In this document: positions 1-19,697 of the stretch, in pieces
Numbering within the stretch: the stretch's first letter is position 1
How the letters are laid out: each line of letters opens with the position of its first letter
Virus record (IMG/VR): IMGVR_UViG_3300025030_001170
Location: 1 to 21,651 of that record
From: a virus
DNA length: 21,651 bases
Strand: one strand, 5' to 3'
Translations under genes and position numbers: made by a program
The notes under the pieces: generated by a model
What the model was told of the DNA's origin: nothing
The model's database searches: none
The model's input: only the letters and a program-made list of their open reading frames with translations

Positions 1-122
1 TAACCTGCTGTGCCTGTTGTCCGGCGCGGGTTGGAGCGACGGCACGGGTGCCGGGGTTTGGGCGGCCCGTTGGGGTGGCGCTCGGGCGAGCTCGGGCAGC
101 AACGTGGGCTTTCGGCTCGCCT
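1..122 (+). repeat. DGR variable repeat (VR)
   Basis: It aligns without gaps to 573-694 (offset 572). There are 21 mismatches in 122 positions, and all fall where TR has A: 17 A-to-G, 4 A-to-C, no A-to-T. Nine TR adenines are unchanged and no C, G or T in TR is altered. This adenine-specific pattern is the signature of DGR mutagenic retrohoming. Similarity is lost from about 123. VR may extend upstream of the window. The run 102-119, identical to TR, is the likely initiation-of-mutagenic-homology segment. Confidence 0.95.
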
Positions 123-136
123 GTTACCCTGTATAA
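2..136 (+). CDS. DGR variable protein, C-terminal fragment (5' end outside window)
   Basis: Only the last 44 codons of the DGR target gene are in the window, ending at TAA 134-136. The frame is set by the TR/VR match: it turns the TR adenines into runs of AAY codons, the usual DGR design. The end reads ...SNVGFRLACYPV. The GFRLAC-type ending is typical of C-type-lectin or formylglycine-generating-enzyme-like folds used by DGR target proteins, such as the Bordetella phage tail tip protein Mtd. Relative to TR, 14 residues differ, mostly Asn to Gly, Ser, Ala, Arg or Asp. The protein probably binds a host receptor or another ligand at the phage tail. That role is inferred from the family, because the N-terminal part is not visible. 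Confidence 0.88.
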   Translation, partial: NLLCLLSGAGWSDGTGAGVWAARWGGARASSGSNVGFRLACYPV

Positions 137-150
137 TCGAGCGATAGCGA

Positions 151-561
151 GTGGCTATGGGCGCAAATTCTGAGGCAGGACTGAATAGAAAATTCGTGGA
201 ATTCGCGAAGCTGCTCAATATCTACCTCAACCACTTTCCCAAACACGAAAAGTTCGCCCTGGCGAACCTGATCAGGACCACGGCCTATGAAATTTACGAT
301 GCCATCACCGAGGGGCAGAAGCGGTATCACAAGAAAACCACCCTGAGCAACCTGGACATCGCCCACGAGAAGCTGCGCATGCAGCTGCACCTGGCCAATG
401 AACTCGGCTATTTCCGCTACAAGGACGGCCGGGATGATGAGGACGATGCCACCGAGACCGCGCGGCACCGTTATCTGGCAATCAGCGCCATGGTGGACGA
501 ACTGGGCGCGATGATCGGCGGCTGGATCAAGAAAATGAAGGATGAAAACAAATGGCAGTAG
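151..561 (+). CDS. avd: DGR accessory variability determinant (Avd), four-helix bundle
   Basis: This 136-aa all-helical basic protein lies between VR and TR, the standard avd position. Avd forms a pentameric barrel that binds the RT and the template RNA and is required for mutagenic cDNA synthesis. Family-like segments are LANLIRTTAYEIYDAITEG in the first half, an AHEKLRMQLHLANELGYF-like third helix, and the C-terminal DELGAMIGGWIKKMK, which closely matches the conserved (L/M)xGGWIK ending. The start is ambiguous: GTG at 151 or ATG at 157. Neither has a strong Shine-Dalgarno, so translation may be coupled to the target gene ending at 136. The usual family length is about 125-130 aa. Confidence 0.9.
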   Translation: MAMGANSEAGLNRKFVEFAKLLNIYLNHFPKHEKFALANLIRTTAYEIYDAITEGQKRYHKKTTLSNLDIAHEKLRMQLHLANELGYFRYKDGRDDEDDATETARHRYLAISAMVDELGAMIGGWIKKMKDENKWQ

Positions 562-572
562 GGGCTGCGTAT

Positions 573-694
573 TAACATGCTGTGCCTGTTGTCCGGCGCG
601 AATTGGAACAACAGCACGAATGCCGGGGTTTGGGCGGCCAATTGGAATAACAATCGGGCGAACTCGAACAACAACGTGGGCTTTCGGCTCGACT
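573..694 (+). repeat. DGR template repeat (TR)
   Basis: This is the invariant donor copy of VR, 12 bp after the avd stop codon and 132 bp before the RT start. It contains 30 adenines, concentrated in AAT and AAC codons at 601-603, 607-612, 619-621, 640-642, 646-654, 661-663 and 667-675. A to G or C changes in the first two codon positions give many residues without creating stop codons. In DGRs the TR transcript is copied by the RT with adenine errors and the cDNA replaces VR. The 3' end at 673-691 matches VR exactly, then an A/C difference at 692/120 follows, as expected for IMH* against IMH. Confidence 0.95.
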
Positions 695-826
695 ACGGTT
701 CCCCTCAAAGCGCGATGAGTGCATAGTGGAGCCACAGGGATGCGCAGTCCTGCATAACGGCGAAATCTTTTTTGCCCGGCTTTCTGGTAGGAGCAATCCG
801 ACGGCCAGCCCGGCAGGTTTTGAGCA
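695..826 (+). other. TR-RT spacer, probable part of the DGR template RNA
   Basis: These 132 nt hold no gene. In the Bordetella phage DGR the spacer between TR and RT is a folded part of the template RNA that binds RT-Avd and primes cDNA synthesis, and the length here (about 130 nt) is similar. The first 32 nt continue the TR reading frame to TAG at 724-726 and look like a relic of the duplicated target gene end. The rest is GC-rich, with local inverted segments such as ggct (about 777-785) against agcc (about 806-809). The RNA role is inferred from the family. Confidence 0.5.
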
Positions 827-1846
827 ATGAAGCGAATCGGCAACCTGTTTGACAAAGTGTTCAGCATCGACAACCTTCTGGCTGCCTACGAGGACGCCAG
901 GAAGGGCAAGCGAAACAAGCGCGCCTGTTTTGAATTCGAGCGGCACCTGGGAGCGCGGATCATGTGCCTGCACAAGGCATTGCTGGCTGGCACCTACCGG
1001 CCACAACCGTATCATAAGTTCACGGTCATGGAACCGAAAGAGCGAGAGATCTATGCGCCGGCCTTTGCCGACGTGGTGGTGCAGCACGCCATCTACCGGG
1101 TGATTTACCCGCTGTTCGATCGGACGTTCATCGCCACCTCCTTTGCCTGTCGCAAGGGCTACGGAACGCATCGGGCCAGCGACTACACCCAGCAGGCCAT
1201 GCGCCGGTGCAGCGGCGAAGAGTATTTCCTGCAGTTGGACGTTCGCAAGTTCTTTTATTCTATCGATCGGGCGGTGCTTCAGGGGCAGATCGAGCGCAAG
1301 ATCAAGGATAGGCGCCTGGTCGAGGTGATGATGCTTTTCGCCGAGTACGAGGAACCAATTGGGATCCCCATCGGCAACCTGCTCAGCCAGATCTATGCGC
1401 TGATCTATCTGAACAGCCTGGACCATTACGTCAAGCGGGTGCTGAAGATCAGGCAGTATGTTCGCTACGTTGACGATTTTGTTCTAATCGGGCTGACTCG
1501 AGAGCAGTGCCTGTCCTGCAGGCTGCGGATAATCGAGTTTTTGAGAAATGAGCTGCGCCTGGAGCTGTCAAAAACAACGATCCAGAAGATCCGCCGCGGC
1601 ATCAATTTCGTCGGCTATCGGACCTGGCGCACATGCAGGGTGATCCGCAAATACAGCCTGTATAAGTTTCGGCGGCGGGTGCGCAGCAGCGACCTGCAGG
1701 CAGTAATCTCGCTGCTCGGCCACGCCAAGCGGACGCAGTCCCTGCGCTATATGCTCAACCTTATCATGGAGGTTAACCGTGCCCTCTTTTTACAAGTACC
1801 GCAAAGCCTCAGATCAGTACACAGTTTACCAGCTGCAGCTGCCTGA
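827..1846 (+). CDS. DGR reverse transcriptase
   Basis: This 339-aa reverse transcriptase matches the compact length of DGR RTs (about 300-400 aa, no RNase H or endonuclease domain). Visible motifs are LQLDVRKFFYSID around residues 136-147 (catalytic D138), the DGR hallmark IPIGNLLSQ around 180-188 (SQ in place of the SP of most retroelement RTs), the catalytic YVDD at 214-217, and the NFVGYR segment at 260-265. It copies the TR RNA, misincorporating opposite adenines, together with Avd. Its location after avd and TR is canonical. The last 68 nt overlap the next gene. The alanine-rich tail after residue 325 may be dispensable. Confidence 0.96.
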   Translation: MKRIGNLFDKVFSIDNLLAAYEDARKGKRNKRACFEFERHLGARIMCLHKALLAGTYRPQPYHKFTVMEPKEREIYAPAFADVVVQHAIYRVIYPLFDRTFIATSFACRKGYGTHRASDYTQQAMRRCSGEEYFLQLDVRKFFYSIDRAVLQGQIERKIKDRRLVEVMMLFAEYEEPIGIPIGNLLSQIYALIYLNSLDHYVKRVLKIRQYVRYVDDFVLIGLTREQCLSCRLRIIEFLRNELRLELSKTTIQKIRRGINFVGYRTWRTCRVIRKYSLYKFRRRVRSSDLQAVISLLGHAKRTQSLRYMLNLIMEVNRALFLQVPQSLRSVHSLPAAAA

Positions 1847-2165
1847 ACCGGCCGAGGATCAGCCGGGGATGATCGACCTAGGCGAGATCGACGGCGAGAC
1901 ATTTGTCTGCGTACCGGACTGGATGCACCCACTGCCGGAGCAGCCGAAGCAGATTACGCTGACACAGATTACGCCGACTCAAGGGCTGATTACTTCGTTC
2001 TTTGCAAAAAGCGGGCTGCTACAGCTCGTTAAGGCCAGGATGGACAACAAGCAGCCGATGGTACGCTACTCGCTGCAGGACGAATTGACCCTGGCGCAGT
2101 GTTACGACTGGCTTCCCCCGTCCCTGGAACGGCACGTTGATGACGGGAGGATCTGGGCAAAATGA
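1779..2165 (+). CDS. hypothetical phage protein
   Basis: This 128-aa protein starts at GTG 1779, supported by a GGAGG at 1768-1772 six bases upstream, so the 68-nt overlap with the RT gene is probably real. It is soluble and acidic to neutral, with a QITLTQITPTQ segment near the middle and a C-terminal helical stretch ending DDGRIWAK. I recognise no domain and see no membrane segment or signal peptide. Its place directly after a DGR and before the lysis genes suggests a structural or tail-associated role, but nothing in the sequence proves that. The stop overlaps the next start by four bases. Confidence 0.75.
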   Translation: MPSFYKYRKASDQYTVYQLQLPEPAEDQPGMIDLGEIDGETFVCVPDWMHPLPEQPKQITLTQITPTQGLITSFFAKSGLLQLVKARMDNKQPMVRYSLQDELTLAQCYDWLPPSLERHVDDGRIWAK

Positions 2166-2733: not shown

Positions 2734-3450
2734 ATGAAAAAAATAACCTTCCTCATGCTTGCGGCCATGATCTTTTGCTCGGGCACTGCCTACGCTTTCG
2801 GCTCTCTCCCTGACGGGTGGTTTGACGGTAAGCCGGTAACACCTCCGGAAGATGTACCGCCTGTTCAGCCGCCGCCCCCGGACCCGGTACAGACAATCAC
2901 AATTGAATACGGAACACGAAATGTCTTCACCAACGAGGTGAACTTTCATTTTAGCAAACCGATCAGCGAATACGGCTCCAAATTTAATTTGAATACCGGT
3001 GGCAAGAAGTACACGATCGGTGCTGATGGTTACAAGGACGGTAATATCGAGGTCCGCAACTCGCAGACGACCAAAAAACTCGTTATCATCGCCGGCCCTG
3101 CATACGCCACCAAGGGCGCGTCGGTCGCCTACCCCTCGAAAGACCCACTGACCAAGCCGGAAGCTACGCCGACTCCGGAGCCACAGCCGGGACTAAGCCA
3201 GCACTTCCACCACTGGAACCCTGCGGCGGTCTGGAACGGGGTCGGGCTTGTACTATGCCCTGACTCACCCAAATACAACTCCTGCACTTTCAACGGCGAG
3301 GCTATGACCCTGCACGGCGCGAAAGACAAGGGCCGCTGGGTGTGGGCGCAGTATTCGAAAAACAAAGGAAAGGGCGGCATAATCATCTGTGACGGGACCA
3401 AATTTGAGGTCAAAGGCGGAAATGAAATGCAAAAGGGGGACTGCTGGTGA
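2734..3450 (+). CDS. secreted hypothetical protein with signal peptide
   Basis: I place the start at ATG 2734, not the upstream in-frame ATG at 2698. It has a GGGAG at 2721-2725 and then encodes a textbook signal peptide (MKKITFLMLAAMIFC, cleavage probably after TAYA near residue 21). The mature protein has a proline-rich linker (PPPPDP near residue 50), a beta-rich domain (about 52-120), a second proline/threonine linker (TPTPEPQP) and a C-terminal domain with three cysteines, ending KGDCW. The two-domain, linker-joined layout suggests an exported envelope or ligand-binding protein, possibly a superinfection or lysogenic-conversion factor. No family was recognised. Confidence 0.8.
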   Translation: MKKITFLMLAAMIFCSGTAYAFGSLPDGWFDGKPVTPPEDVPPVQPPPPDPVQTITIEYGTRNVFTNEVNFHFSKPISEYGSKFNLNTGGKKYTIGADGYKDGNIEVRNSQTTKKLVIIAGPAYATKGASVAYPSKDPLTKPEATPTPEPQPGLSQHFHHWNPAAVWNGVGLVLCPDSPKYNSCTFNGEAMTLHGAKDKGRWVWAQYSKNKGKGGIIICDGTKFEVKGGNEMQKGDCW

Positions 3451-3653
3451 TGAGACTATTTATTGCTTTGGGACTGGCACTGATGCTGGCCGGCTGCGCG
3501 AACAGTAGCCGGAACCTGACAGTACACCTGCACGACAGCGCAACGCTGATGATCTGCGGCTCTACCATATCCCCGGAGGTTATGAAGTCCAACACGGATG
3601 AAAGGGCCTCGAACGCAACCGATGTTTCTCCGACCATTCCGATGGTGCCATAA
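3450..3653 (+). CDS. small putative lipoprotein
   Basis: This is a 67-aa product from ATG 3450 (GTG at 3447 is also possible), with an AAGGGGGA at 3433-3440 as ribosome site. Residues 1-16 are a hydrophobic export signal ending in the lipobox LAGC, followed by a short polar serine/threonine/asparagine-rich tail. Size, lipobox and location between a secreted protein and a holin-like gene resemble outer-membrane spanin subunits (Rz1-like) or other small phage lipoproteins. It is not proline-rich as most Rz1 proteins are, and no inner-membrane Rz partner is obvious, so the spanin idea is tentative. Confidence 0.7.
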   Translation: MRLFIALGLALMLAGCANSSRNLTVHLHDSATLMICGSTISPEVMKSNTDERASNATDVSPTIPMVP

Positions 3654-3669
3654 CAAAATGAGGGGAGAT

Positions 3670-3840
3670 ATGACCGCAATAATGGGCGGATGGGTAACAT
3701 GGGCAGCGGTGGCCGGTTTTGTACTGCTGGCAGTGGTTGATATCTTCAACGGCGAGTACCAGAAAGCGGTCGAGAAATTGACTGCGGCTGGTGGGCTTAT
3801 CGGTATCGGCAGGAAGATTGAAAAAGGGGAAGTGAAATGA
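3670..3840 (+). CDS. small membrane protein, holin-like
   Basis: This 56-aa protein from ATG 3670 has the ribosome site GAGGGGAG at 3660-3667. One strong hydrophobic helix (about residues 7-23: TWAAVAGFVLLAVVDIF) is followed by an amphipathic segment and a second weakly hydrophobic glycine-rich stretch, with a charged end (GRKIEKGEVK). Size and location before two cell-wall hydrolases fit a holin or holin-like protein. The stop overlaps the amidase start by four bases. The upstream frame to 3598 lacks a good ribosome site and overlaps the lipoprotein gene. Confidence 0.7.
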   Translation: MTAIMGGWVTWAAVAGFVLLAVVDIFNGEYQKAVEKLTAAGGLIGIGRKIEKGEVK

Positions 3841-4448
3841 GTCAGCAGTTCCCAGAACTTCGCTGCGGTGATGAGTTCGCCGTTTGCACTGATCGCTTCT
3901 TCGGCAGGCTGATCAACATCCGGCAACGTCTCCAGGCGGCAGACCGCGAAGCCACCTACAACCACTGTGGGATAATCAAAAATGCCGCAGGCGATACCTT
4001 TGAGTCCCGCCGCCGAATCGACAACTACAACTTATTTAAGATGTATGCGGGCCGCAAAATTATCATCATGCGCCCGAACGTCCCGCAGGAGACCCTTGCC
4101 GGAGCCATAGCGCAACTCGAAGAGAAGTTCAAAGGGCGGGTCTATCCATGGTGGCGTATCGTCTTGCACATACTTTCCCCGGCTCTGGCCAGGGACATCA
4201 GTCTTTCCGGTATCCCGGTCTGTTCTGAGCTGCAAGGGTTCCAGCGGTTTTTGATCGGGGTTCGACACAAGTATTATATGGGGTCAACTCCTGATTTGCT
4301 GGTTGACGAGGCGAGGCACTGGCGAGAATACTCCTTACCATACGAGGATACTTGCCCGGAGAGCCTGCCGCCGCCGTTAACCGTTGACGTGATGGACGCG
4401 CAGGAAGCAACGGGCGATACGCCTACAATATTCACAGGCAGCCCGTGA
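3837..4448 (+). CDS. YiiX/YaeF-like permuted papain-fold amidase (C92 type)
   Basis: This 203-aa protein resembles permuted NlpC/P60 enzymes of the YiiX/YebB group. It has an N-terminal GDEFAVCTD (residues 11-19), a histidine in YNHCGII at 43, and a downstream cysteine in GIPVCSEL at 129 where the permuted family places its nucleophile. Such enzymes cleave amide bonds in peptidoglycan peptides or lipids. The expected order H then C is present. Its setting next to a holin-like gene and an M15 endolysin suggests a role in lysis or cell-wall remodelling. The C-terminal 30 residues are acidic and proline-rich and probably unstructured. It starts at an ATGA overlap. Confidence 0.75.
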   Translation: MSQQFPELRCGDEFAVCTDRFFGRLINIRQRLQAADREATYNHCGIIKNAAGDTFESRRRIDNYNLFKMYAGRKIIIMRPNVPQETLAGAIAQLEEKFKGRVYPWWRIVLHILSPALARDISLSGIPVCSELQGFQRFLIGVRHKYYMGSTPDLLVDEARHWREYSLPYEDTCPESLPPPLTVDVMDAQEATGDTPTIFTGSP

Positions 4449-4481
4449 GCCTCAGCAGGCCGGGCGGTAAGGAGTGGCTGG

Positions 4482-4820
4482 ATGACATCAGAGCAATTTG
4501 CGCAACTGCTTTCAATCTTAAAACAGCTGTTGGAAAAGCAGTATACAATTTCCGGCGCAGCCGATTGGCCAATGCTCCTTGTGATTGGGACAATATTAAT
4601 GGGTGCGATTGGTGTTATGTGGGCCGATCTCCGAGCGAAGTTGAGCGACCATCGCACTGCGGCAATGACAGACCTCCGGGAATACAAGGGCGCAAACGAG
4701 AAAGATATCGCAGAATTGAAGGTGGCAAACAAAAATGACCACGACCTAATCTGGGGCGCAATGAGGGATTGCCAAAACGAGTGTTGCCCGCGACATACCA
4801 GGGAGCGAGTGCGCGAATGA
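4482..4820 (+). CDS. phage membrane protein with coiled coil
   Basis: This 112-aa product from ATG 4482 has an AAGGAG at 4468-4473. An N-terminal amphipathic helix (SEQFAQLLSILKQLLEKQ) is followed by one transmembrane helix (residues about 29-46: WPMLLVIGTILMGAIGVM), then a long charged helix of coiled-coil type and a C-terminal cysteine pair ECCPRH. The layout recalls XhlA-type hemolysin or holin-associated proteins and spanin-like inner-membrane subunits. A competing frame (4445-4738) lacks such features. It is coupled by ATGA to the next tiny gene. Confidence 0.75.
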   Translation: MTSEQFAQLLSILKQLLEKQYTISGAADWPMLLVIGTILMGAIGVMWADLRAKLSDHRTAAMTDLREYKGANEKDIAELKVANKNDHDLIWGAMRDCQNECCPRHTRERVRE

Positions 4821-8884: not shown

Positions 8885-9778
8885 GTGGATAGAGAATTAT
8901 GGCTTCAGAACAGAAAGACCGGGATCGGCGGCAGTGATGCGCCGGCCATTATGGGATTATCGGCCTGGAAAACGCCGCTTCAGGTCTACATGGAGAAGCG
9001 CGGAGAGCTTGACAATTCCTTTTATGACAACGAAGCGATGGAGTGGGGGCGCCGCCTGGAGCCGGTGATCAGGCAGAAGTATTGCGACCTTACCGGGCTA
9101 GAGGTCGCCGTCCCGCAGGACATCATTCGTCATCCCCTGCATGACTTTATCATCGGCACCCCGGACGGCTTGGCCGCCGACCGCGTCCTTGAGATTAAGA
9201 CCGCACAGTCAATGGATTTATGGGGCGAGGAAGGGACCGATCAGATCCCCCTCAACTATCTGGTACAGGTACAGCATTACATGATGATCACCGGGCTCCC
9301 GGCGGCAGACATTGCGGTACTGTTCTCCTACTCGAACTTCAAGATTTACAATGTCTTCGCCGACTATGAACTGCATGCCCTCATGCTCAACAAGGAAGTT
9401 GAGTTCTGGAACAATGTCCAGAAGGGGGTAGCCCCCGACCCGGTTTCGGCCGAGGATGCCCGGATGAAGTTCCCCAAGAGCACGGCCAGTATCGTCACTG
9501 CCGGCCCGGAGGTTGTGGAACTGCATGAACGGATCAAAGGGCTTTCCGCGCAGGGAAAGGATATCGAGACTCAGCTTGAGCAGGCGAAAACCGAGGTTAT
9601 GACCTTCCTGGGCGAGAATGATACGGTCGTTGATCAGGCCGGCCGACAACTCTTCACCTGGAAATCGAGCAAGCCGCGGGAAGGGTTCGACAAGGACCTG
9701 CTCAAGCTGGAAATGCCGGAAGTATATCGGAAATATGTAAAAGAAGGCGCCTCTTCGCGCCGTTTCCTCACCAAATAA
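8885..9778 (+). CDS. YqaJ-type viral recombinase exonuclease (lambda exonuclease fold)
   Basis: This 297-aa alkaline exonuclease is of the YqaJ/RedAlpha superfamily. It resects double-stranded ends to give 3' tails for its annealing partner. Motifs: GIGGSDAPAIMG (13-24), E59 in RRLEP, GTPDG (91-95, D94) and LEIK (102-105, E103 and K105 of the PD-(D/E)XK core), then QVQHYM (128-133). The start is GTG 8885 after AGGGGG. The C-terminal 90 residues form a coiled coil plus a tail typical of larger family members. The probable annealing protein follows 11 bases downstream. Confidence 0.93.
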   Translation: MDRELWLQNRKTGIGGSDAPAIMGLSAWKTPLQVYMEKRGELDNSFYDNEAMEWGRRLEPVIRQKYCDLTGLEVAVPQDIIRHPLHDFIIGTPDGLAADRVLEIKTAQSMDLWGEEGTDQIPLNYLVQVQHYMMITGLPAADIAVLFSYSNFKIYNVFADYELHALMLNKEVEFWNNVQKGVAPDPVSAEDARMKFPKSTASIVTAGPEVVELHERIKGLSAQGKDIETQLEQAKTEVMTFLGENDTVVDQAGRQLFTWKSSKPREGFDKDLLKLEMPEVYRKYVKEGASSRRFLTK

Positions 9779-9789
9779 AAGGAGCGAAC

Positions 9790-10950
9790 ATGGAAAAGAA
9801 TTTCTTTGCACCGGAAGTATCAGGGGGGACAATGCCCGTTGTCAAGCCGCAGGGGGCAATGGTCGAGATTGAGCAGAGCCGGAGTATCGCCGAGACCCAG
9901 GCGGCAATGATCATCGCCAAGCGGTTTCCCCGGGACGAAAAGCTGGCCCTGGACCGTATTCTCATGGCCTGCACCCGCCCTACCCTCGCCGATCAGGCCC
10001 TCTATTCCTACGCCCGGGGCGGCACGGAGATCACCGGCCCGAGCATCAGGATGGCCGAAGCAATCGCCCAGTGTTGGGGGAACCTGCAGTTCGGTATCCG
10101 CGAACTGGAGCAGCGCAACGGAGAGTCCACGGTCGAGGCCTACGCCTGGGACGTAGAGACCAACACCCGGCAGGTGAAGGTTTTCCAGGTCGCGCACAAG
10201 CGGGCGACGAAGAAAGGGACCTATGCCCTGGAAGATCCCCGGGACATCTACGAGATGGTAGCCAACCAGGGCGCCCGCCGCCTCCGGGCCTGCATTTTGG
10301 GCATTATCCCGGGTGACGTGATCGAGACTGCGGTCAGCCAGTGCGAGACCACCCTGAAGAACAAGGCCGAGGCGACCCCGGAACGGATTCAATCCATGCT
10401 GGAATCATTCGCCACCTACAAGGTCACCAAGGAGATGATCGAGACCCGTATCCAACGGAGAATAGAGGCGATCACCCCGGCCCTCCTGGTCCAGTTGGGC
10501 AAGATTTACAATTCTATAAAGGACGGGATGAGCGTGGCCGCAGACTGGTTTGAAATTGCCAAGGCCGAGGAGAAGCAGACCGGGAACGAGGCGCTCAAGA
10601 GCAAATTGAGCGGCAAGGGGAAAGAAGCAAATCAAGCAGCAGCTCCCCCCGCAGAAGAAACAAAGATGGAAGCCGACGTTCCCCTAGAGCAGCCCGCCGA
10701 TACTTCCGGTCCAGCTCAGGCCGATATTCGGCAGACGAAAATCTCCGGATTCAAGAAGGAGATCGACGCCTGCAAGACTGCAGAAAATGTCGATACATGG
10801 CGGTCGAAGCACAACAAGCGGGTTGATGCCGCGTTCAAACAGGACGACGACGCCTATACGGAGGTCATGTCCTACGCGAATGATCGGTTCGCGGCCCTCT
10901 CTCAGGGGGAAACGGCAGGACAGGATACCGGAAGCAAGCTGAAGCTGTAG
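9790..10950 (+). CDS. probable single-strand annealing recombinase (partner of YqaJ)
   Basis: This 386-aa protein follows the YqaJ exonuclease with the ribosome site AAGGAG at 9779-9784. The conserved-looking core, about residues 70-185, contains YSYARGG, ITGPSIRMAEA, AYAWDVETN, a DIYEMVANQGARRLRACIL helix and IPGDV, a pattern I associate with phage proteins encoded next to YqaJ. The C-terminal third (about 255-310) is a low-complexity, alanine/glutamate-rich linker followed by a short helical end. Annealing activity is inferred mainly from gene order. It would bind single strands made by the exonuclease and pair homologous DNA. Confidence 0.72.
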   Translation: MEKNFFAPEVSGGTMPVVKPQGAMVEIEQSRSIAETQAAMIIAKRFPRDEKLALDRILMACTRPTLADQALYSYARGGTEITGPSIRMAEAIAQCWGNLQFGIRELEQRNGESTVEAYAWDVETNTRQVKVFQVAHKRATKKGTYALEDPRDIYEMVANQGARRLRACILGIIPGDVIETAVSQCETTLKNKAEATPERIQSMLESFATYKVTKEMIETRIQRRIEAITPALLVQLGKIYNSIKDGMSVAADWFEIAKAEEKQTGNEALKSKLSGKGKEANQAAAPPAEETKMEADVPLEQPADTSGPAQADIRQTKISGFKKEIDACKTAENVDTWRSKHNKRVDAAFKQDDDAYTEVMSYANDRFAALSQGETAGQDTGSKLKL

Positions 10951-15278: not shown

Positions 15279-16138
<860 letters not shown>

Positions 16139-16163
<25 letters not shown>

Positions 16164-19199: not shown

Positions 19200-19697
19200 T
19201 TACTTCCGTCCGTTTGATTCACACACGACCACGAGCGGTGCTTTCCAGGTGTCCCAGAACCGCCGCGACCTCGTTCCGTCCATCTGCGCTATTCGCTCAT
19301 TGTCGAAATTCCACCAATCCACCAGGCTGTGAAACTCGCAGCCTATTTTCATGTGCGCGTCAAAAATGATGACGTGGTATTCTCCGGTTTCAATTTGGAT
19401 AGGGATTTTCTCAATTGTTATTTTTTCACCGTTGGCCCGGCTCAGGTCGGCCCCGCTCAGGTCGGCCCCGCTCAGGTAGGCCCGGCTCAGGTAGGCCCCG
19501 CTCAGGTCGGCCCCGCTCAGGTTGGCCCCGCTCAGGTAGGCCCCGCTCAGGTTGGCCCCGCTCAGGTCGGCCTTATTCTCAATAGCCCATCTGACGGCAA
19601 GGCCGACTTTCGCAGATATCGCATCATCCTTCTTCGCCTTGATGTTGGCGATGAACTGTACCTCTCCGGTAAACCGGTTTTTAATCTCGTATTTCAT
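19200..19697 (-). CDS. pentapeptide-repeat protein
   Basis: This 165-aa protein carries nine or more tandem A(D/N/Y)LS(G/R) pentapeptides (about residues 43-92), which fold as a right-handed quadrilateral beta helix. The stretch before the repeats contains [10 protein letters not shown], a typical lead-in for phage members. A separate C-terminal domain (about 93-165) follows ([20 protein letters not shown]). Some pentapeptide proteins mimic DNA and block gyrase or nucleases; that is possible but not shown here. AAGGAG lies eight bases before ATG 19697. Confidence 0.9.
19441..19575 (-). repeat. nine 15-bp tandem repeats encoding pentapeptides
   Basis: The unit ctcaggtcggccccg occurs nine times with changes mainly at one position (c, a or t) that swaps Asp, Tyr and Asn codons. 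High identity between units suggests recent expansion and possible copy-number change. Confidence 0.9.

What the first reader, a model, noticed from the sequence alone, without database searches (positions are those of the whole stretch)
1..1846. Complete DGR core in a phage lysis-proximal location
VR (1-122), avd, TR (573-694) and a DGR-type RT (SQ motif, YVDD) are all present. All 21 VR/TR differences fall on TR adenines (17 to G, 4 to C, 0 to T), with nine adenines unchanged and no change at C, G or T. Fourteen codons differ, 12 of them in the AAY/AGC cluster. The large share of adenines changed shows the system has been active.
Basis: partly seen in the sequence, partly recalled or inferred. 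Interest (0 to 1): 0.85.

Follow-up and report, generated by a model that had tools for sequence, protein, structure and literature searches.

The report
Active receptor-mutating retroelement in a phage
This phage carries a working copy of a known kind of targeted-mutation machine (a diversity-generating retroelement) that keeps rewriting the tip of a probable host-binding protein; sister genomes show it in action, and its DNA landing-site hairpin is built in a way I did not find described.

Summary
VR 1-122 and TR 573-694 differ at 21 sites, all TR adenines, with avd at 157-561 and a DGR-type RT at 827-1846. One correction: the A/C difference at VR 120 is not mutagenesis. TR "GAC" against VR "GCC" at the repeat's 3' end is fixed in 117 of 121 relatives, so 20 sites are products of mutagenesis.

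The target gene upstream was recovered from a sister contig: a 564-aa C-type-lectin protein, closest in fold to the Thermus DGR variable protein TaqVP and to BPP-1 Mtd. Sister contigs keep the TR identical while the VR changes. Window and L005 are identical over 3,374 bases outside VR and differ at five VR sites, all TR adenines. In 15 sibling pairs, 184 VR differences lie at TR adenines and 7 elsewhere.

Layout matches Bordetella phage BPP-1, so this is a new member of a known kind. The specialist-level novelty is the hairpin after VR. It lacks the published 7-10 bp stem and instead flanks the GATA loop with tandem G.A positions; 84 of 135 relatives share this form. About 30% of target relatives have lost the retroelement core, leaving a frozen receptor.

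The parts
2..136 (+). 3' end of the DGR target gene (last 44 codons and TAA stop 134-136); rest of the gene lies off the contig, complete in L005 3088-4782 (564 aa)
   Evidence: translation; full-length gene in sister contig L005
1..122 (+). variable repeat (VR); 20 mutagenised adenine sites
103..122 (+). IMH-like 3' end of VR: unchanged stretch plus the fixed GCC (TR: GAC) difference at 120
   Evidence: GAC/GCC in 117 of 121 relatives
138..151 (+). target-site hairpin CGAGC[GATA]GCGAG, tandem G.A type, 15 bases after VR
   Evidence: comparative pairs; only 2 bp by standard DNA rules
157..561 (+). avd, accessory variability determinant (alternative start GTG 151)
   Evidence: Pfam bAvd E 1.7e-15; NCBIfam NF033474 E 1.3e-20, 73.6 bits against cut-off 80
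573..694 (+). template repeat (TR), 30 adenines, asparagine AAY codons
   Evidence: identical in L003, L004, L005
675..694 (+). IMH*-like 3' end of TR (GAC at 691-693 where VR has GCC)
695..826 (+). spacer (Sp) between TR and RT: conserved structured RNA, probable RT/Avd-binding and cDNA-priming element
   Evidence: 15 of 19 pairs with compensatory change, 93.3% cells paired vs 72.3% shuffled; model R1 hit 675-822, E 5.5e-28 (the window row was in the model)
827..1846 (+). DGR reverse transcriptase, 339 aa
   Evidence: RVT_1 E 2.9e-14; best solved relative is the BPP-1 DGR RT 8ub7, E 1.4e-55, against 8e-23 for a group II intron RT; 38% identical to Brt
1779..2165 (+). small gene overlapping the RT end (128 aa, no family); lies directly after the target in relatives that lack the DGR core; possibly a partner or chaperone of the target
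   Evidence: same position as bbp4 in BPP-1 but no evident sequence likeness

Best explanation
A functional, recently active diversity-generating retroelement of the BPP-1 layout in a dsDNA tailed phage. The avd-TR-spacer-RT stretch is transcribed. RT and Avd bind the structured spacer RNA and copy TR into cDNA, misreading adenines. The cDNA replaces part or all of VR in the adjacent target gene, guided by the IMH-like 3' end and the GATA-loop hairpin after it. The target is a C-type-lectin-fold tail or receptor-binding protein whose C-terminal binding face is thereby varied, probably changing which host surfaces the phage can bind. Shown here: the anatomy, adenine-restricted VR change with constant TR between sister phages, conserved spacer structure, and the lectin fold of the predicted target. 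Inferred from BPP-1: transcription, RNP formation, cDNA priming, integration and host-range change.
For: VR/TR anatomy. Window, L005 and L004: identical TR, 0 (L005) or 6 (L004) differences outside VR, and 5 VR differences all at TR adenines. Fifteen sibling pairs give 184 vs 7. RT closest to the BPP-1 DGR RT structure; Avd families. Same gene order in BPP-1 and in 97 relatives with VR-TR spacing about 540-760. Spacer covariation. Predicted target, pLDDT 81: TaqVP Z 27.8 over 300 residues, Mtd Z 12. The PHROGs hits of the target include tail families.
Against: No expression, RNP or infection data. The sister contigs are assembly consensuses, not read-level variants. The hairpin lacks the 7-10 bp stem found essential for efficient homing in BPP-1 (PMC3240598). 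Model R1 does not detect the BPP-1 spacer. The host and the identity of the bound molecule are unknown.
Confidence: 0.95

Rival explanations
1. The DGR is a fossil: VR was diversified long ago and the system is now silent.
For: Decayed relatives are common: of 62 target relatives with at least 1.5 kb downstream, 10 keep only fragments of avd or RT and 9 keep no detectable trace.
Against: RT and avd are open and conserved here; window and L005 share every base of 3,374 outside VR but differ at five VR adenine sites.
Confidence: 0.03
2. VR differences between sister phages come from ordinary recombination between divergent target genes, not from mutagenic copying.
For: L003 carries a different target gene up to the VR (69% protein identity to the L005 target) joined to a nearly identical core, and its VR has 7 non-adenine differences from the TR; these bases resemble sister TRs such as L006 and L007. 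So target-gene exchange next to VR does happen.
Against: It cannot produce 184 adenine-site against 7 other differences in 15 pairs with identical or near-identical cores.
Confidence: 0.04
3. A side question, not exclusive of the best explanation: the GATA hairpin at 138-151 is not a homing element but a translation signal for avd (its 3' arm runs into the GAGTGG before ATG 157).
For: It lies between the end of the target gene and the avd start; the stem is very weak by standard DNA rules.
Against: It occupies the place, and has the GRNA loop, of the proven BPP-1 element (PMC3240598); 43 relatives have a Watson-Crick hairpin at the same spot; several targets that lost the core (L128, L137, L147, L151, L180) also lack it.
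Confidence: 0.2

Closest known systems
Bordetella phage BPP-1 DGR (mtd-avd-TR-brt)
   Same: Gene order target-avd-TR-RT-small gene-endolysin; adenine-only VR/TR change; RT 38% identical over 287 aa; spacer of similar length; GRNA-loop hairpin after VR; lectin-fold target.
   Different: The BPP-1 hairpin has an 8-bp Watson-Crick stem (-12.2 kcal/mol); here there are only 2 bp flanked by tandem G.A. The target resembles TaqVP more than Mtd (Z 27.8 against 12). BPP-1 has no GAC/GCC mark. Avd is barely alike in sequence (E 0.02).
Thermus aquaticus prophage DGR variable protein TaqVP (PDB 5vf4)
   Same: Closest solved fold of the target, Z 27.8 over 300 residues, VR at the extreme C-terminus (PMC6328139).
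   Different: The target has an inserted domain (about 333-418) that resembles the E1-enzyme and phage T1-type tail-tube domain and a longer, poorly predicted N-terminus.
Pseudomonas phage Bise (OR683401)
   Same: Closest annotated phage RT (57% identity), same VR-avd-TR-RT order, GAC/GCC mark, R1 spacer.
   Different: Contractile-tail phage; its target was not compared with this one; 6-bp Watson-Crick hairpin.

Membership tests
Diversity-generating retroelement | TR/VR pair with differences restricted to TR adenines | tested here: met
   21 of 21; siblings 184 vs 7
Diversity-generating retroelement | Reverse transcriptase of the DGR type | tested here: met
   SQ motif and YVDD in the translation; best solved relative is the BPP-1 DGR RT 8ub7. 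The NCBIfam hits are to other RT families, all far below their cut-offs
Diversity-generating retroelement | VR inside the coding sequence of a target gene | tested here: met
   VR ends the 564-aa ORF of L005
Diversity-generating retroelement | Mutagenic homing (RT-dependent transfer from TR to VR) | not testable with these tools
   only its natural footprint is seen
BPP-1-type DGR | avd gene between VR and TR | tested here: met
   bAvd E 1.7e-15; NF033474 E 1.3e-20, slightly below its cut-off
BPP-1-type DGR | IMH and IMH* (3' ends of VR and TR nearly but not fully identical) | tested here: met
   fixed GCC against GAC, 117 of 121
BPP-1-type DGR | GRNA-loop inverted repeat shortly after VR | tested here: met
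   GATA loop 143-146, 20 bases after VR; an element of this kind in nearly all relatives
BPP-1-type DGR | 7-10 bp GC-rich Watson-Crick stem of that hairpin (common feature in PMC3240598, not part of the definition of a DGR; not strictly required for activity, PMC12875486) | tested here: not met
   2 bp only; tandem G.A variant instead
BPP-1-type DGR | Structured spacer RNA between TR and RT | tested here: met
   covariation
C-type-lectin DGR variable protein | C-type-lectin (FGE subtype) fold with VR at the C-terminus | tested here: met
   predicted model: TaqVP Z 27.8, Mtd Z 12, FGE Z about 10; prediction only

The most novel reading that the evidence does not exclude
This clade of phage DGRs uses a distinct class of target-site hairpin. 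A GRNA loop is closed by two base pairs and then tandem G.A positions (GA-NN-GRNA-NN-GA), with a short outer stem or one bulged T, in place of the published 7-10 bp stem. It is interchangeable in evolution with the Watson-Crick form, and it works in active elements such as this one.
Probability: 0.55. Interest if true: 0.5.

Novelty: new member of a known kind. Interest (0 to 1): 0.42.

Why it matters
It is a clear natural experiment: two phage contigs identical over 3.4 kb except for five adenine-derived bases in the receptor tip, with the template unchanged. It extends BPP-1-like diversification to a large clade of environmental phages. It also raises a testable point about how homing sites are recognised, because active members lack the stem that BPP-1 needs for efficient homing. 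The repeated loss of the core from related phages suggests that diversification is often given up and the receptor frozen.

Tried and rejected
(1) 3'-to-5' polarity of homing: window/L005 differ only at the 3' side of VR, but other pairs differ only in the middle (L037/L038) or the 5' half (L034/L035), so no general polarity. (2) Mutagenesis in trans of the core-less phage L120/L129: its VR has 5 non-adenine mismatches to this TR (positions 9-118), so it was not freshly copied from it; its contig holds no RT match. (3) Selection for in-frame avd-RT fusions after core loss: only 4 of 7 fusions are in frame (read off the coordinates). (4) Rfam has no family matching the window. (5) The R1 spacer model does not find the BPP-1, VP58.5, ANMV-1, BalMu-1 or ACA1 spacers, although BPP-1 shares the string GTCCTGC...GGCGAA. 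(6) The target by sequence alone has no Pfam family and no credible PDB relative; only the fold comparison identified it. (7) G.A invariance is by construction (that is how the class was defined), as is pairing of the two inner positions; the evidence is the share of loci, the two-way changes of the inner pairs (CG 46/TA 8; GC 50/AT 4) and the pairing of outer positions that were not selected for.

Full report
WHAT WAS CLAIMED AND WHETHER IT IS THERE. A direct count gives exactly that: offset 572, 17 A>G, 4 A>C, 0 A>T, 9 of 30 adenines unchanged, nothing at C, G or T. The repeat is also found blind. The window is the whole of an IMG/VR record of 21,651 bases, a fragment that begins at the VR, so only the last 44 codons of the target gene are on it.

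THE MISSING TARGET GENE AND THE POPULATION TEST. A scan of IMG/VR with the RT brought in three records of the same phage: L003, L004 and L005. The 8.1-kb L005 supplies the target gene: an ORF of 564 aa (3088-4782) ending in VR, preceded by two smaller genes (one with tail-fibre-like PHROGs hits) and a large LPD38-domain protein. Across window and L005 the TR is identical and the 3,374 shared bases outside VR have no difference. The VRs differ at five sites (96, 98, 99, 101, 102), all TR adenines. L004 has the L005 VR and six differences elsewhere. In 15 sibling pairs with identical or nearly identical cores, 184 VR differences lie at TR adenines and 7 at other bases.

A CORRECTION: THE MARK AT POSITION 120. 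In 117 of 121 relatives the TR reads GAC and the VR GCC at the 3' end of the repeat. The A>C at window 120 is therefore a fixed difference of the IMH/IMH* kind and not a product of mutagenesis. It lies beyond the last varied adenine (102), as expected if cDNA does not carry that base into VR. BPP-1, VP58.5 and ACA1 do not have this mark; Pseudomonas phage Bise, which belongs to the same clade, does.

SPECTRUM. Over relatives, changed adenines go to G, C and T in the proportion 904:495:438. BPP-1 RT in E. coli also favours C misincorporation opposite A, that is A>G in the product (59%), then 26% and 14% (PMC12875486). The window's 17:3:0 fits the first rule but has an odd lack of T (roughly 0.5% by the clade's proportions, my estimate). 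Selection on one recent lineage would explain it; this was not tested.

THE PARTS. Avd matches Pfam bAvd and the NCBIfam Avd model, the latter just under its cut-off. The RT is nearest to the BPP-1 DGR RT among solved structures, by a wide margin over group II intron RTs, and is 38% identical to Brt. In an RT tree it sits with L006, L007 and L008 (support 99) inside a large clade of phage and prophage DGRs apart from BPP-1, VP58.5, ANMV-1 and BalMu-1 (the distant rows have long branches). The spacer 695-826 is strongly conserved. A consensus fold has 19 pairs, 15 with compensatory changes; 93.3% of cells are paired against 72.3% in shuffles, and sliding the partners destroys it. A covariance model of it hits the DGR-bearing relatives searched, Bise included, but not BPP-1 and the other older phage DGRs. 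In BPP-1 the spacer recruits RT-Avd and primes cDNA (PMC12875486); the same role here is inferred.

THE TARGET. The AlphaFold2 model of the 564-aa protein (34 sequences, mean pLDDT 81) matches TaqVP, the variable protein of the Thermus aquaticus prophage DGR, at Z 27.8 over 300 residues, then BPP-1 Mtd variants at Z 12 and FGE-type lectin folds. A domain inserted at about 333-418 resembles the E1-enzyme domain that is also matched by phage T1-type tail-tube chains. PHROGs hits include tail families. The varied residues are at the C-terminus, as in TaqVP and Mtd (PMC6328139). That it is the receptor-binding protein is inferred.

THE HAIRPIN. In BPP-1 an inverted repeat after VR is needed for efficient homing, and phage DGRs compared there have GC-rich 7-10 bp stems and GRNA loops (PMC3240598). 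Window 138-151 reads CGAGC GATA GCGAG. The loop fits; the stem does not, since standard DNA rules give 2 bp and -0.8 kcal/mol against -12.2 for BPP-1. But GA on both sides, two pairs away from the loop, recurs in 84 of 135 loci (54 distinct sequences), while 43 have a Watson-Crick stem at the same place. The two inner pairs change on both sides (CG or TA; GC or AT), and outer pairs that were not used to define the class pair far above shuffles, in one subclass with a bulged T. The sequence CGAG/CGAG is what tandem sheared G.A pairs would use (own knowledge, not tested). The label changes at least 12 times on the RT tree by parsimony, 2 by well-supported branches alone. Several sibling pairs with adenine-only VR changes have the GA form, including the window, so the form is compatible with activity. 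BPP-1, VP58.5, ACA1 and Bise have Watson-Crick stems. I did not find the GA form in the open papers read; papers outside the held library could describe it.

LOSS AND EXCHANGE. Of 62 relatives of the target with at least 1.5 kb downstream, 43 have an RT of full or nearly full length, 10 only fragments, 9 no trace (three of the nine, L137-L139, look like near-copies, and some of the nine may never have had a core). Fragments include avd heads joined to RT tails, for example L136, L181, L189. The small gene that overlaps the RT end in the window (1779-2165) then lies close after the target, so the core sits as a cassette between two genes. In L003 the target is from another lineage, joined at the VR to a core that is otherwise the same, and its non-adenine VR bases resemble sister TRs.

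VERDICT. An ordinary but well-documented active DGR: new member of a known kind. Its interest lies in the population evidence and the hairpin variant.

Noticed in passing
window 15687-15729: Near-perfect palindrome (21-nt arms, 1 nt apart, 90% complementary) inside ORF 15279-16163, which lies just before a DnaB-like helicase gene; possible replication origin.
   Followed up: no
window 19200-19697 (- strand): Pentapeptide-repeat-like protein gene with a 15-nt repeat array (19416-19602).
   Followed up: no
L003 1058-2824: A second, 588-aa paralogue of the target upstream of the DGR target, ending in the same CACYPV/CACYPV-like tail but with no VR-like similarity to the TR found.
   Followed up: partly
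L120 / L129 (IMGVR 3300025030_000306): Phage contig of 33.7 kb with a close relative of the target, intact VR end, hairpin and avd start, but no RT match and no second TR-like copy: a frozen receptor after loss of the core.
   Followed up: partly
L136 7559-8506; L181 2717-3055; L189 1495-2016: In-frame fusions of the avd start with the RT end, after deletion of the TR and most of the RT.
   Followed up: partly
window 1779-2165: Conserved small gene of unknown family that follows the target in core-less relatives; candidate partner or chaperone of the target.
   Followed up: partly
window 8885-10950: YqaJ-type exonuclease next to a 386-aa protein of phrog_3657 (unknown function): looks like a phage recombination pair.
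   Followed up: no
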